Below, one piece after another: positions 18,288-64,000 of a stretch of DNA of 64,000 nucleotides. The stretch is from a bacterium (GTDB lineage Bacteria > Pseudomonadota > Alphaproteobacteria > Acetobacterales > Acetobacteraceae), in the NCBI GenBank assembly GCA_026224825.1, contig JAMFRO010000002.1:124001-188000 (forward strand), read 5' to 3'. Every line of letters starts with the position of its first letter. The first letter of the stretch is position 1. Under the pieces are notes generated by a model. The model ran no database searches. It was not told the DNA's origin and was given only the letters and a program-made list of their open reading frames with translations. The position numbers were made by a program, and so were the translations under genes.

Positions 18288-18487
18288 GAAAAAAGGCCAG
18301 GGCTCTGCCCTGGACCCGCTGGGGCCTGAGGCCCCAGCCCCCCATTAGTTGAAGACTTAAAAAAGAGGCCTGCCTCCGGGGTGTTTCAAACACCACAGTG
18401 GCAGGCCTCTTTTTTAAGTCTTAAGTAGCGGGATCCAAGGGCCTTTCGGCCCTTGGCGGGTCCAGGGCAGAGCCCTGGCCTTTTTCC
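18288..18487. repeat. Modular palindromic intergenic element, copy A (type I core)
   Basis: Fills the space between two convergent genes. Outer arms GGCCAGGGCTCTGCCCTGG (about 18294-18312, itself a hairpin) and its inverse at about 18461-18479 pair; inside lie hairpins CTGGGGCC/GGCCCCAG (about 18319-18337) and CCAAGGGCC/GGCCCTTGG (about 18435-18456). The core is a perfect stem of more than 20 bp, 18354-18374 with 18400-18420 (AAAAAAGAGGCCTGCC half), capped by GGTGTTT-C-AAACACC (18380-18394). A-run and T-run flanks make it a plausible bidirectional terminator. Confidence 0.9.
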
Positions 18488-18504
18488 TTACAAACGCCCC
18501 AGTC

Positions 18505-31183: not shown

Positions 31184-31268
31184 GGAAAAAGGCAAGGGGC
31201 TCCGCCCCCTTGACCCCCGCTGGGCCTCAGGCCCCAGCGGGTCCAGGGCAGAGCCCTGGCCTTTTTCC
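31184..31268. repeat. Modular palindromic element, copy F (scaffold only, no core)
   Basis: 85 bases between the hypothetical gene and sdhB. Left outer hairpin AAGGGGCTCCGCCCCCTT (about 31193-31211), middle hairpin CTGGGCC/GGCCCCAG, right outer hairpin CCAGGGCTCTGCCCTGG-type (about 31245-31261), bounded by GGAAAAAGGC and GCCTTTTTCC. It matches the outer parts of copies A and E but lacks the long central palindrome. Confidence 0.85.
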
Positions 31269-31293
31269 TATCCCACCGAAGAGCCTACGTGCA

Positions 31294-52650: not shown

Positions 52651-52894
52651 GAAAAAGGCTGGGGTTCCGCCCCTGACCCCGCTGGGGCCGCAGGCCCCAG
52701 ACCCCTAGACTTAAGGAAATGAGAGAGGGGGTCATTCGCCCCATGGACCTATGCATGTGCGCACCGGTCCATGGGGCGAATGACCCCCTCTCTCATTTCC
52801 TTTAAAAGCTAATGGGGGTCCGGGGCCGTCACGCCTAAGGCGTGCTGCGCACGACGGCCCCGGCGGGTCCAGGGCAGAGCCCTGGCCTTTTTCC
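52651..52894. repeat. Modular palindromic intergenic element, copy D (type II core)
   Basis: Lies between convergent genes. The outer hairpins GGCTGGGGTTCCGCCCC (left) and GGGCAGAGCCCTGGCC (right) are the shared scaffold. The core is a perfect 37-bp inverted repeat, 52713-52749 with 52766-52802, of the AATGAGAGAGGGGG type, with a 16-base loop. On the right, CCGGGGCCGTC / GACGGCCCCGG forms an extra hairpin replacing the usual one. Confidence 0.9.
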
Positions 52895-52902
52895 TTACCC
52901 AA

Positions 52903-56100: not shown

Positions 56101-57053
56101 AAAAAATCTTGAGTGCCACCGGCTGGCTCATCCTGTTCGCTGCCCTCGGCACAGCCATCATGGCCGGGCTCAGCGTGGCACTGCTGCCGCACCGCCTGCC
56201 GCTGCGCACATTGCTGCACCTGGGCGCCACCGGCATCATACCTGCTGCTCTGGCCTGGCTCATCGCCCTGTGCTTCGCCGCCCTGCCCGGCGCGAGGCGC
56301 ACACCAGGTGCCACCCCCCGCTTCGGCCTGGCGCAAGGCCTGTGGGGCATGGCCGGCACGCTGCTGCTCATGCTCTGCGGCGCGATGCTGCCCTATATCG
56401 CGGCAGTCTACCTCATGCTGATCCGCATGCTCCGGCACCTGCCCTCCCACATGCCGGACAAGCACGACATCTTCCTGCTCATCACCTCCCTGCTCGCCAG
56501 CGAGCTCATGGCCGCCCTCTGGCTCGCCTGGTACATCCGCCGCCAGGGCCGGCTGGTGCTGGCCGATGGCAGCGCCTCCGGCATCGCCTGGCGCCCCGCT
56601 CCGCTCCAGGCCTACGCCATGGCCGCCCTCGGTGCGCTGGCCGTGCTGCTGCTGGCGGCAGCCGAGTTCCTCCTGGTGCCGCCCGACCTCAGCAGACTGA
56701 ACGATCTGGAGCTGGCACAACTCTTCCAAGGCCCCGCCGCCGTCGCCCTTCTCGCAACCGGGGTCGTCGTCATCCTGGCCCCCATCATCGAGGAAGTGCT
56801 GTTCCGCGGCCTCGCCTTCGCCGGCATCGCCGCCCGCCTGGGCCCAGCCTGGGCCATAACCATCACCACCATCATCTTCACAGCCCTGCACGCCCCAGAA
56901 AAAATCCTCTACTGGCCCGGCTTCATAGACGTCGCCGCCATAGCCCTGCTCTCCTGCGCCCTGCGCCTGCACTACCGCTCCATCCGCCCCGGCATCGCCA
57001 TGCACTTCTTCTACAATTTCGGCATGCTATTGGTGCCGCTTGTGGGGAAGTAA
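56097..57053 (+). CDS. CPBP-family intramembrane metalloprotease
   Basis: 318 residues, about eight hydrophobic spans. PIIEEVLFRGLAFA contains the CPBP Glu-Glu (232-233) plus Arg motif, and the following ALHAPEK and IAMHFFYNFG His/Asn positions complete the Abi/CAAX protease site. Substrate unknown; family members cleave prenylated or bacteriocin-type peptides or act in envelope quality control. Starts inside the gluQ stop; repeat E follows immediately. Confidence 0.87.
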   Translation: MKKILSATGWLILFAALGTAIMAGLSVALLPHRLPLRTLLHLGATGIIPAALAWLIALCFAALPGARRTPGATPRFGLAQGLWGMAGTLLLMLCGAMLPYIAAVYLMLIRMLRHLPSHMPDKHDIFLLITSLLASELMAALWLAWYIRRQGRLVLADGSASGIAWRPAPLQAYAMAALGALAVLLLAAAEFLLVPPDLSRLNDLELAQLFQGPAAVALLATGVVVILAPIIEEVLFRGLAFAGIAARLGPAWAITITTIIFTALHAPEKILYWPGFIDVAAIALLSCALRLHYRSIRPGIAMHFFYNFGMLLVPLVGK

Positions 57054-57275
57054 GTAAAAAGGCTGGGGCTCCGCCCCTGACCCCGCTGGGGCCGCAGGCC
57101 CCAGACCCCTAGACTTTTGGGATAATGAGAGAGGGGCTGTGCGCGCCCCAGTTCGTGGCTACATTCCACGATCTGGGGCGCGCACAGCCCCTCTCTCATT
57201 ATCCCACTAAAAGCTAATGGGGGTCCGGGGCCTGCGGCCCCAGCGGGGTCAGGGGCGGAGCCCCAGCCTTTTTAC
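57054..57275. repeat. Modular palindromic intergenic element, copy E (type II core)
   Basis: Starts within the CPBP stop region. Outer arms GGCTGGGGCTCCGCCCC and the inverse GGGGCGGAGCCCCAGCC, then CTGGGGCC/GGCCCCAG. The core is a perfect 34-bp inverted repeat, 57118-57151 with 57173-57206, of AATGAGAGAGGGG type, capped by CGTGG/CCACG. Both ends of the core share AATGAGAGAGGGG and CGCCCCA with copy D, but the sequence in between differs. Confidence 0.9.
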
Positions 57276-57359
57276 TTATCTCCCCCACAAGCAGCACCAT
57301 TTGGCTTGTGCCGAAATTTTGGGTAGAATGGTGGCAATGTCGCGTTTGGAGAAGAGACT

Positions 57360-61611: not shown

Positions 61612-61613
61612 AA

Positions 61614-61815
61614 GGAAAAAGGCCAGGGCTCTGCCCTGGACCCGCCAAGGGCCGAAAGGCCCTTGGATCCCGCTACTTAAGACTTAAAAAAGAGGCCTGC
61701 CACTTCGGTGTTTCAAACACCGGGGAGGCAGGCCTCTTTTTTAAGTCTTCAACTAATGGGGGGCTGGGGCCTCCAGGCCCCAGCGGGGTCAGGGGCGGAG
61801 CCCCAGCCTTTTTCC
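61614..61815. repeat. Modular palindromic intergenic element, copy B (type I core, inverted order)
   Basis: Between convergent XRE and AraC genes. Read in reverse it is nearly copy A: hairpin CCAAGGGCC/GGCCCTTGG left (about 61650-61671), core stem 61681-61701 with 61727-61747 (AAAAAAGAGGCCTGCC half), cap CGGTGTTT/AAACACCG, then CTGGGGCC/GGCCCCAG. The right outer arm GGGGCGGAGCCCCAGCC is the other sequence type, as in copies D and E. Confidence 0.9.
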
Positions 61816-61817
61816 TT

Positions 61818-62804
61818 TTAACGCGCCACGGCGCCGTTCCGCATGTCGCCGGGTGTCATGTCGTACGTGCGTTTGAACATGCGGTCGAAGGTGGAGTGGT
61901 CTGCGAAGCCGCTGCGGAAGGCGATTTCGCTGATCAGCAAATTGGCGCAGGCGGTGGATTGCAGCAGGCGTGCGGCGTGGGCCAGGCGTGCGGTCCAGAT
62001 GGCGGTGGCGACGGTTTCCCCTTGCCCGGCAAAGGCGCGGTACAAAGCGGCGCGCGAGCAGCCCAGGCTGGTGGCGAGGTGCTGCGGCGTCAGTTCGGGG
62101 TTGATGCAGTCACGCGCGATGAGGGCGAGGGCGGCGTGGTAGGTGCCGGTGGTGAACTGGCCCGCATCGAGCCCGCCCCCGGCCTGCATCTGCAGGATGG
62201 ACAGCGCCATATCCGCGGCGGCGCCGATGGCCATGGCGCGCTGCGCCGGGAACAGATGAGCGGCCTGTTCCATGGTGGTGAGCATATGCTGGCGCAGCAG
62301 TGCCGCCAGCCCTTGCCGGGGCAATAACCGCCCCGCCAGTGCCGCCGGATTGCCAACGGCATTGCGCACACGGGCGCGCGGGATGAACAGGCTGATGACT
62401 TTATGTTTCGCGCGGTTAAGTTCGAGCGGCTGGGCGCAATCCACCACCACCATATCACCGGTGTGCAGGCGTTTCGTGCCGGCATGGGTCAGGCTGGCGC
62501 GTGTGGAGGCGGCGATGAAATCGATGGCGATGGCGTCGTAATCATCGCGCCGGCAGCGCTGGGCGTCACGCGTGGCCAGGAGGGAATCGGCGCTGTGCTG
62601 CAGCAGCTCCGCCCCATCGCCGCTCAGGCGTATCAACCGGGCCTGGAAGGGTTTTTTATCCTCATGCCGCTGTTTGGCATCGAGCCGGCGCAGCACGGAT
62701 TCAGTCCAATATGCGGCGCGCTGACCAGGCGGCACGGCATCGGTGGAGAACACGCTCACCACCTCGGCTGCTGGCGGCGCCGAAGTCTCGTTAAGCGGCG
62801 CCAT
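61818..62804 (-). CDS. AraC-family transcriptional regulator (AraC-binding-like N domain)
   Basis: 328 residues from ATG 62804 (AGGA upstream); the longer frame to 62870 is not preferred. The N-terminal part (PPGQRAAYWTESVLRRLDAK..) looks like the AraC_binding_2 type of FeaR/NahR-like regulators; the C-terminal HTH_18 is complete: LTPQHLATSLGCSRAALYRAFAGQGETVATAIWTARLAHAARLL and SEIAFRSGFADHSTFDRMFKRTYDMTPGDMR. The neighbouring permease gene on the same strand could be a target, but no evidence links them. Confidence 0.88.
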   Translation of the reverse strand: MAPLNETSAPPAAEVVSVFSTDAVPPGQRAAYWTESVLRRLDAKQRHEDKKPFQARLIRLSGDGAELLQHSADSLLATRDAQRCRRDDYDAIAIDFIAASTRASLTHAGTKRLHTGDMVVVDCAQPLELNRAKHKVISLFIPRARVRNAVGNPAALAGRLLPRQGLAALLRQHMLTTMEQAAHLFPAQRAMAIGAAADMALSILQMQAGGGLDAGQFTTGTYHAALALIARDCINPELTPQHLATSLGCSRAALYRAFAGQGETVATAIWTARLAHAARLLQSTACANLLISEIAFRSGFADHSTFDRMFKRTYDMTPGDMRNGAVAR

Positions 62805-62953
62805 CCTTGTGTATCCTTTATCCACGCCAGCCCGGCCCCAAAACCGCGCCTGGCGCACGGCAATGTACATTCGCGTGTAATGAGACTTACGGTCAATACA
62901 TTAACCATCTCCTGAAACGCAGGGCCCAATCACATCAGCCCAGCCGAGGTGAA

Positions 62954-63159
62954 GGGAAGAAGGCCAGGGGCTTTGCCCCCTGGCCCCCCCACTGGGCCTG
63001 AGGCCCAGACCCCATTAGTTGAAGACTTAAAAAAGAGGCCTGCTACCTCGCTGTTTCAAACAGCACGGAAGCAGGCCTCTTTTTTAAGTCTTAAGTAGCG
63101 GGGGTCTGGGGCCTCAGGCCCCAGCGGGGTCCAGGGGCAGAGCCCCTGGTCTTTTTCCC
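62954..63159. repeat. Modular palindromic intergenic element, copy C (type I core)
   Basis: Same order as copy A. Outer hairpin AGGGGCTTTGCCCCCT left and GGGGCAGAGCCCC right; middle CTGGGCC/GGCCCAG and CTGGGGCC/GGCCCCAG; core stem 63024-63044 with 63070-63090; cap GCTGTTT-C-AAACAGC (63050-63064). Two positions differ from copy A on both arms, so pairing is kept. It lies between two genes on the same strand. Confidence 0.9.
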
Positions 63160-63160
63160 T

Positions 63161-64000
63161 TCATCTCGCCAGCGCATGTTCCTCGGCCGCGATCTCGGCG
63201 GTGCGGGCGGCGATGGCGGCGGCGCCGATGGGCGGGCCGGGGAAGTGCTTGCGGGCGACGGCAAACCAAAAGACCGCCAGCAGCACGAGCAGGCCGATGA
63301 AGTAGCTATCGAGGATGTCGTTAGGCGGGCGGGTGCCGATATAGATGATCACCACACCGCCCAGCACGGAGATGACGGCGAACAGCTTGGAGAAAGCCCC
63401 CAGGCGGAACGGCCCAAATTCCGTCCAGCTTTTCCCTTCCGCCAGCAGCCCGGCCAGAACCGGCATGGCGTAGGAGATGTACAGGAACATCGCGCAGCCT
63501 GCCGCCAGCGCCGCGAAGGCCGGGGAGTACAGCGTGGCGGCGATGGAGAGGGCCACCGTGAACCAGATGGCGTAAACGGGTGAGCGGTGTTTATGGTCAA
63601 CCTGTTTCAGCCATTTGCTGCCCGGCAGGCCGCCATCGCGCGAGAAGGCATAGACCATGCGCGAGGTGGAGGTGACACCGGCCAAAGCGCAGAGGAAATT
63701 GGCCAGCACGATGCCGACGTAAAGCAAATCCTTGAACCAGGCCGGGATGGTCAGAGCGGCCATCAGGTTGAAGATCACGTTACCGCCGGCGGCGGCCGCC
63801 TTCGTCTCATCGGGCATGGCCAGGATAAAGGCCCCCGCCATGGCCAGGCCAAACACAGCCGACCAGAAAATGGAGTTGAGAATGCCGCGCGGCACGTTGC
63901 GGCGGGCATCCACGGTTTCTTCCGAGGTATGGGCGGAACCATCGAACCCGGTGATGGTATAGAGCGGGTAGAGCAGCGCCAGCAGGAAGAGGTAGAAATG
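63161..64000 (-). CDS. APC-superfamily amino acid permease (5' end cut by window)
   Basis: At least 280 residues; the frame is open to base 64000, so the N-terminus is missing. Readable in it are YTITGFDGSAHTSEETVDARRNVPRGILNS, a helix motif of APC permeases of the yeast/bacterial amino acid transporter type, then several long hydrophobic spans (GMA-type FWSAVFGLAMAGAFIL, VGIVLANFLCALAGVTSTSRMVYAFSRDGGLPGSKWL). Substrate unknown: GABA, polyamine or other amino acids are possible. Element C lies just past its stop. Confidence 0.88.
   Translation of the reverse strand, partial: HFYLFLLALLYPLYTITGFDGSAHTSEETVDARRNVPRGILNSIFWSAVFGLAMAGAFILAMPDETKAAAAGGNVIFNLMAALTIPAWFKDLLYVGIVLANFLCALAGVTSTSRMVYAFSRDGGLPGSKWLKQVDHKHRSPVYAIWFTVALSIAATLYSPAFAALAAGCAMFLYISYAMPVLAGLLAEGKSWTEFGPFRLGAFSKLFAVISVLGGVVIIYIGTRPPNDILDSYFIGLLVLLAVFWFAVARKHFPGPPIGAAAIAARTAEIAAEEHALAR

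What the first reader, a model, noticed from the sequence alone, without database searches (positions are those of the whole stretch)
62954..63159. Compensated base changes keep the type I core stem and its cap paired
Comparing copy C with copy A: the last core-stem pair is C18374-G18400 in A and T63044-A63070 in C, and the cap changes from GGTGTTT/AAACACC to GCTGTTT/AAACAGC. Both arms changed together while the 21-bp stem stayed perfect, as expected if a folded form is selected, or if arms are copied from one another.
Basis: seen in the sequence. Interest (0 to 1): 0.62.

Follow-up and report, generated by a model that had tools for sequence, protein, structure and literature searches.

The report
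Hairpin terminator repeats with rewritten arms
Near-perfect hairpins that sit in many copies at the ends of genes in some Acidocella bacteria, probably as two-way stop signs for transcription, keep both arms matched while their sequence changes, and some carry the same loop turned round, which hints that the arms are kept matched partly by DNA copying and not only by selection.

Summary
The letters are as described: C18374-G18400 in copy A, T63044-A63070 in copy C, cap GGTG/CACC versus GCTG/CAGC. The perfect stem is 23 bp, not 21. The genus is Acidocella. With 70 distinct cores recruited by sequence profile and a home-made tree null like R-scape's, 8 of 3003 column pairs covary, all 8 in the hairpin; the cap change is among them, the last stem pair shows no signal. 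In the 62-row set 14 of 60 rows show wobble or no pair there.

The hairpin is the core of a ~200-bp nested palindrome with dozens of copies in this genome, at gene 3' ends (27 convergent, 24 tandem, 0 divergent); it looks like a two-way intrinsic terminator. Stems change pairwise with few intermediates (0.5% wobble, RNase P 9.5%). Two exact tips occur in both orientations relative to their arms, and cores mostly do not follow their site between species. Best reading: terminator cassettes kept paired by selection plus DNA-level arm copying and exchange; termination and copying are inferred.

The parts
62954..63159 (.). Copy C, whole nested palindrome, between the stop end of the transporter gene (63161-63913, -) and the start of the AraC-type gene (61818-62870, -)
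62964..62983 (.). Outer hairpin h1 of copy C (CCAGGGGCTTTGCCCCCTGG)
   Evidence: read; shared outer arm
62992..63008 (.). Second hairpin h2 of copy C (CTGGGCCTGAGGCCCAG)
   Evidence: read
63010..63021 (.). Junction arm 'a' (CCCCATTAG...), differs from the opposite junction
63022..63044 (+). Left arm of the 23-bp core stem; A-tract on this arm
63045..63069 (.). Tip: 5x5 internal loop (63045-63049, 63065-63069) and cap GCTGTTT-C-AAACAGC (63050-63064)
63070..63092 (+). Right arm of the 23-bp core stem, T-tract 63080-63085
63093..63099 (.). Junction arm 'b' (AAGTAGC)
63106..63124 (.). h2' hairpin (CTGGGGCCTCAGGCCCCAG)
   Evidence: read
63131..63156 (+). h1' hairpin plus T-tract, terminator-like site
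   Evidence: 2 terminator-like sites in 62880-63220, shuffles 0.6 +/- 0.8; the scan allows loops of 3-8 only, so it does not see the core
18290..18489 (.). Copy A of the same family (core stem 18352-18374 / 18400-18422)
61612..61817 (.). Copy B, between convergent HTH gene and AraC-type gene
52652..52896 (.). Same kind of shell with a different core (GAGAGAGGGGG stem)
57052..57285 (.). Same kind of shell with a second GAGAGAGGGG-type core
31186..31270 (.). Shell without a core (h1, one central hairpin, h1')

Best explanation
The finding describes two variants of one core hairpin in a family of nested palindromes that stand at the 3' ends of genes in some Acidocella and most likely end transcription from both sides. 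Shown: dozens of copies in this genome and in one relative; gene-end location; near-perfect stems with A- and T-tracts; significant covariation confined to the hairpin, the cap pair among its top three pairs; few wobble and mismatch intermediates in the stem; two exact tips each found in both orientations relative to the arms; cores that mostly do not follow their site between species. Inferred: that the hairpin terminates RNA in vivo; that stems stay perfect because replication template switching (or recombination between copies) copies one arm from the other and turns the tip, while selection for two-way termination removes copies that lose the fold; and that cores move between sites by exchange through the shared outer arms.
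For: Location: 27 convergent, 25 tandem, 0 divergent, 4 unknown of 56 distinct own sequences; one tandem row (L042:251) is not an element, so 24; window baseline for gaps of at least 60 bp: 9 convergent, 12 tandem, 5 divergent. A/T tracts in 59 of 62 rows. Between the orthologous HTH and transporter genes 7 of 10 relatives' loci show a plain A-tract / GC hairpin / T-tract (by eye). Covariation. Intermediates: core stem 0.5% wobble and 0.12 intermediates per double-changed cell, RNase P of 30 Acidocella genomes 9.5% and 1.73; parsimony steps: core stem 59 double, 20 one-sided; RNase P 93 and 124. Without the pairing filter 1.0% wobble. Orthologous own/G014 cores: 26 stem pairs changed on both sides, 5 on one side, over 7 of 9 sites (one of the 9, L045/L063, is own/G021 and not counted). 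Tip inversion: 2 exact tips in both orientations relative to the arms (5 against 1; 2 against 1); by tip type 13 against 21 of 34 scorable A1 rows. Orthologous cores rank 2, 14, 15, 2 and 12 of 16 G014 cores. Arm homogenisation with spacer inversion is the published footprint of template switching (PMC8604942, abstract and one section; PMC8794818, abstract and passages).
Against: No transcript data. Cores of the GAGAGAGGGG type have no T-tract beside the stem, so the core cannot be the terminator in every copy. Internal loop and junction asymmetry survive, which full-length arm copying would erase. One G014 core (L087) has 3 one-sided changes in its stem, against 2 double, relative to its orthologue. 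No single template-switch event was seen between close strains; own and G014 flanks differ by 9-24%. Exchange of whole cores could by itself give double changes without intermediates. RNase P is more conserved overall than the cores (mean identity 0.85 against 0.72), so it is a rough yardstick. The simple shell may terminate without a perfect core.
Confidence: 0.6

Rival explanations
1. Selection alone keeps the stem: because the hairpin must fold in transcripts from both strands, a G-U pair on one strand is an A-C mismatch on the other, so one-sided changes are removed and only double changes persist.
For: Gene-end location with no divergent case; A/T tracts kept while other stem pairs covary; simple terminators in 7 of 10 relatives at the orthologous convergent site.
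Against: One mismatch in a 23-bp stem should cost little (inference). Tandem-context copies need only one strand. Does not explain tips in both orientations.
Confidence: 0.25
2. Covariation is old and was made once per variant; what spreads is the whole core, by gene conversion between copies through the shared outer arms, in either orientation.
For: Cores mostly not site-specific; the arm junctions are swapped relative to flanking genes at 6 of 9 orthologous sites, same at 2, undefined at 1 (by eye); L022 and L062 look like chimaeras with a T-type left half and an A-type right half (by eye).
Against: Does not say why each variant became perfect in the first place, nor why the tip turns separately from the junctions.
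Confidence: 0.3
3. A mobile palindromic element (REP-like or MITE-like) that happens to land at gene ends.
For: High copy number, largely genus-restricted in the genomes searched, gene-end location typical of REPs (PMC3733652, passages).
Against: No Y1 transposase in own genome (0 of 1); GTAG next to the core in only 35 of 62; no clean empty site seen at the one site compared across many species. Target-site duplication and other transposases were not tested.
Confidence: 0.15
4. Assembly artefact: short-read assemblers mend or turn inverted repeats.
For: Several contigs end inside an element; most of these genomes are in many contigs.
Against: G007, with about 10 contigs, has the same kind of near-perfect stem (L050); 52 of 56 own sequences have genes called on both sides.
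Confidence: 0.05

Closest known systems
Bidirectional intrinsic (Rho-independent) transcription terminators
   Same: GC hairpin with A-tract before and T-tract after, at gene ends, convergent or tandem
   Different: Here ~200-bp nested palindromes, repeated across the genome, with exchangeable cores
REP / BIME / REPIN elements (PMC3733652, passages; PMC3116915, search listing only; PMC12306157 RepRanger, one passage)
   Same: Intergenic palindromic repeats in high copy, between convergent or unidirectional genes. RepRanger reports 1,369 REPs in Lichenicola cladoniae, from recall also a relative in the acetic acid bacteria, so abundant palindromes in this group are not unknown
   Different: Much longer, no constant GTAG tag, no Y1 transposase found in the genome; PMC3733652 reports CGTC repeats missing from Acetobacteraceae
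Hairpin clusters as terminators (PMC8355165, passages)
   Same: Several adjacent hairpins downstream of stop codons proposed as the terminator
   Different: Those are short hairpins of 2-10 bp; here nested long palindromes
Template-switch (quasipalindrome) mutation products (PMC8604942, PMC8794818)
   Same: Perfected arms and inverted spacer or loop
   Different: Those are events inferred in single genes or in rRNA; here the pattern is seen across a dispersed family, and no single event has been caught
Stem-loop sequence families in bacterial genomes (PMC2267715, passages)
   Same: Dispersed intergenic stem-loop families, some suggested as terminators
   Different: The alphaproteobacteria in the passage seen are Brucella and Rickettsia; 'compensatory' occurs 0 times

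Membership tests
Bidirectional intrinsic terminator | GC-rich hairpin followed by a T-tract on both strands | tested here: met
   59 of 62 type I rows have AAA/TTT tracts at the expected columns; one search finds 2 terminator-like sites at copy C (h1' on +, an alternative hairpin on -). Not met beside the stem of GAGAGAGGGG-type cores, where the shell ends carry the T-tracts
Bidirectional intrinsic terminator | Lies downstream of genes | tested here: met
   0 divergent among 51 scorable elements (one non-element row removed); home-made gene caller
Bidirectional intrinsic terminator | Ends transcripts | not testable with these tools
   no RNA data
REP / REPIN | Constant GTAG tetranucleotide at the hairpin foot | tested here: not met
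   GTAG near the core in 35 of 62
REP / REPIN | RAYT (Y1) transposase in the genome | tested here: not met
   PF01797 0 matches in own genome, 94% complete; relatives not searched
CGTC-tagged REP | CGTC end and 8-9 bp stem | not tested
   a CGTCACGCC... module occurs inside some arms but was not compared
MITE | Target-site duplication and empty sites | tested here: inconclusive
   one site compared across species; 7 of 10 carry another hairpin there; duplications not tested
Template-switch product | Arms homogenised without intermediates | tested here: met
   the pattern, not an event; L087 is an exception
Template-switch product | Spacer inverted between otherwise equal repeats | tested here: met
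   2 exact tips in both orientations relative to arms, of about 6 tips found in more than one context; paralogues, not ancestor and descendant
Rfam families | Match at gathering score | tested here: not met
   only RNase P found in the window

The most novel reading that the evidence does not exclude
Acidocella terminators form a dispersed hairpin family in which replication template switching is the main force that keeps stems perfect: arms are rewritten in pairs, and loops, caps and whole cores are turned over in place at nested levels, so apparent compensatory evolution here is largely mutational rather than selective.
Probability: 0.3. Interest if true: 0.75.

Novelty: new variant of a known kind. 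Interest (0 to 1): 0.5.

Why it matters
Covariation is a standard argument that an RNA structure is selected. A repeat family with dozens of copies in a genome, double changes with few intermediates, and tips found in both directions is a natural test of the rival idea that DNA copying makes compensatory changes. PMC8794818 says that a compensatory change with loop inversion would be the strongest support for that idea and found such cases extremely rare (passages). It also gives a set of candidate two-way terminators in an environmental genus. Eight paper searches (titles and abstract starts seen; open-access PMC only) listed nothing that by title or abstract start describes such a family in Acidocella; the only search naming Acidocella listed two unrelated papers.

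Tried and rejected
REP/RAYT origin: looked for Y1 transposase in the own genome, none. Rfam: only RNase P. A first RNase P yardstick mixed strands and was discarded; it was redone with strands set (30 of the 33 genomes with RNase P). The core-stem figures do not depend on that. A first script for tip orientation used a pattern that missed most type I cores; replaced, which still counts L036, L047, L153 and L163 twice, so its 63 contexts are about 59 and its multi-context tips 6 rather than 9. A first unfiltered recruitment failed on column numbering and its pairing figures are wrong; redone.

Selection bias: the element finder asks for at least 21 of 24 paired, so alignment A1 favours paired copies. 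Of 104 centres, 63 passed a cap pattern and 62 were aligned; L162 was dropped by me as hard to align. Because of the cap pattern, the constancy of GTT/AAC in the cap of A1 is by construction; in the profile-recruited set 7 of 70 lack it. L081 and L047 (found) failed the cap pattern and L087, with a damaged stem, was missed by the finder. One search repeats the test on 70 cores recruited at E 1e-6 by a sequence profile without a pairing filter (the profile was built from A1); the result holds. The 56 sequences are distinct core sequences, not places; places with identical cores were merged. In some searches the class with two ATTA junctions is partly false (CATTGG inside h2). Orthologue counts: one search gave 24 double and 2 one-sided over 5 sites; adding L010/L081 (0, 0) and L037/L087 (2, 3) gives 26 and 5; L029/L076 and the other-type pair L045/L063 are not counted. 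Inversion counts are by eye, and L026/L084 has an uncertain right flank. Terminators are by eye: of the 10 loci with both genes, L111 is weak and L117 and L121 show none; of 4 more 3' ends of the HTH gene, L118 and L119 are clear, L122 has a T-tract only, L120 none.

Full report
What was checked. The letters and positions are right. The core stem is 23 bp in A and C, not 21. Folding of the 206-base copy C is far stronger than in dinucleotide shuffles as RNA and as DNA. The window lies in an Acidocella genome: the relative G014 has five contigs whose lengths equal those of five records named 'Acidocella sp. isolate NGEE_A_bin42', and G014 is given as same genus.

What it is. The core sits inside a shell: A-tract, hairpin h1, hairpin h2, junction, core, junction, h2', h1', T-tract. 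In the window three copies carry the type I core (A, B, C), two carry another core with the same kind of shell, and one shell has no core. The own genome gives 86 strand-matches to copy C (40 of 150 candidate regions scored), 60 to a shell arm (40 of 236 scored) and 117 to a covariance model of the core (128 of 1422 scored). Palindromes match on both strands, so places are about half of these, and the counts are lower bounds. The model finds matches in 14 of 38 Acidocella genomes, most in the own genome and G014 (117 and 91 strand-matches), and in 4 of 120 genomes drawn from the order: the own genome, one other Acidocella, and two weak ones in other genera of the family. Other cores found in the same shell have different sequences but similarly long, near-perfect stems.

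Where it is. With a simple codon-based gene caller, 56 distinct own sequences fall into 27 convergent, 25 tandem, 0 divergent and 4 unknown; one tandem row is not an element. In the window, gaps of at least 60 bp are 9 convergent, 12 tandem and 5 divergent. Between the HTH and transporter genes that lie outside B and C, 7 of 10 relatives' loci show a plain hairpin with A- and T-tracts, among them G014 with a compact one that has the same outer ends as the shell (by eye). This supports a terminator role; no transcript was seen.

Covariation. Alignment A1 holds 62 distinct type I-like cores. Of 1915 cells 96.5% are paired (shuffles 83.6%), 23 of 31 pairs have a double change, and the covariation score is 0.372 (shuffles 0.137, 0 of 500); sliding the partner by one column drops pairing to 49-58%. 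A tree-based null modelled on R-scape (home-made, 300 replicates) marks 6 of 3003 pairs, all in the structure, the cap pair 35-47 first. Because A1 was chosen partly by pairing and by a cap pattern, I recruited 70 cores by a sequence profile: over stem columns 7-27, 97.7% Watson-Crick, 1.0% wobble, 1.4% unpaired; 8 of 3003 pairs marked, all in the structure, the cap pair third.

Selection or copying. In RNase P of 30 Acidocella genomes 9.5% of cells are wobble and there are 1.73 intermediates per double-changed cell; in the core stem 0.5% and 0.12. By parsimony the core stem has 59 double and 20 one-sided steps, RNase P 93 and 124. RNase P is the more conserved set, so this is a rough yardstick. 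At 7 orthologous own/G014 sites 26 stem pairs changed on both sides and 5 on one side; 3 of the 5 are in one damaged copy, L087. This could come from strong two-way selection, from exchange of whole cores, or from copying one arm from the other. Exchange is likely: orthologous cores are on average no more alike than any own and G014 core (0.745 against 0.780), with ranks 2, 14, 15, 2 and 12 of 16; two of the five are thus near the top. Inversion is seen: one exact 27-base tip in 5 contexts one way and 1 the other way, a second in 2 and 1; the other 4 tips found in more than one context show one orientation. By tip type, 13 against 21 of 34 rows. At nine orthologous sites the junction arms are swapped relative to the genes in 6, the same in 2, undefined in 1 (by eye). 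Arm homogenisation plus spacer inversion is the published footprint of template switching (PMC8604942: abstract and one section; PMC8794818: abstract and passages). Against full-length arm copying: the internal loop pairs less often than shuffled, and the two junctions remain different in 56 of 63 contexts, 0 equal, 7 unscored (four loci counted twice). L083 has the same junction on both sides (read) but is not in that count.

Verdict. A real and somewhat unusual pattern in what seems a new family of a known kind of element. The cap example is good evidence of a maintained hairpin; the stem-pair example is not. Whether selection, exchange or DNA copying does most of the work is open, and this family is well suited to decide it.

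Noticed in passing
window 61818-62870: AraC-type gene flanked by copies B and C; no match to it in 10 of 10 relatives' loci that hold both the HTH and the transporter gene, though G045 has a 71% match on another contig. Looks like a gene gained between two elements.
   Followed up: partly
window 31186-31270: Shell without core; together with G014's compact hairpin (L097) it suggests a series of nested sizes that could arise by deletion between the repeated hairpins.
   Followed up: partly
arms in L080, L029, L030, L037 and L047: A roughly 30-bp palindromic module (CGTCACGCCGAAGGCGTGC... or a variant of it) inside the arm hairpins of some copies but not of their orthologues.
   Followed up: no
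L045:1983 and L063:1456: Second core type with a near-identical long stem in two species and a loop that has changed almost completely.
   Followed up: no
L215:1501-1970: RNase P match of G014 spans 470 nt against 384 in the window's genome.
   Followed up: no
L156 and L157 (own contig C8): Two elements in opposite orientation with mirrored neighbouring genes of equal coding score, perhaps an inverted duplication.
   Followed up: no
L026, L077 and L084: The left and right neighbours of one own element lie on two G014 contigs, each with its own element: rearrangement through the element, or an assembly break.
   Followed up: no
cap centre, alignment A1 columns 37-45: GTT...AAC recurs in cores whose stems differ widely: 63 of 70 profile-recruited cores. 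Partly circular, since A1, from which the profile was built, was chosen by a cap pattern.
   Followed up: partly
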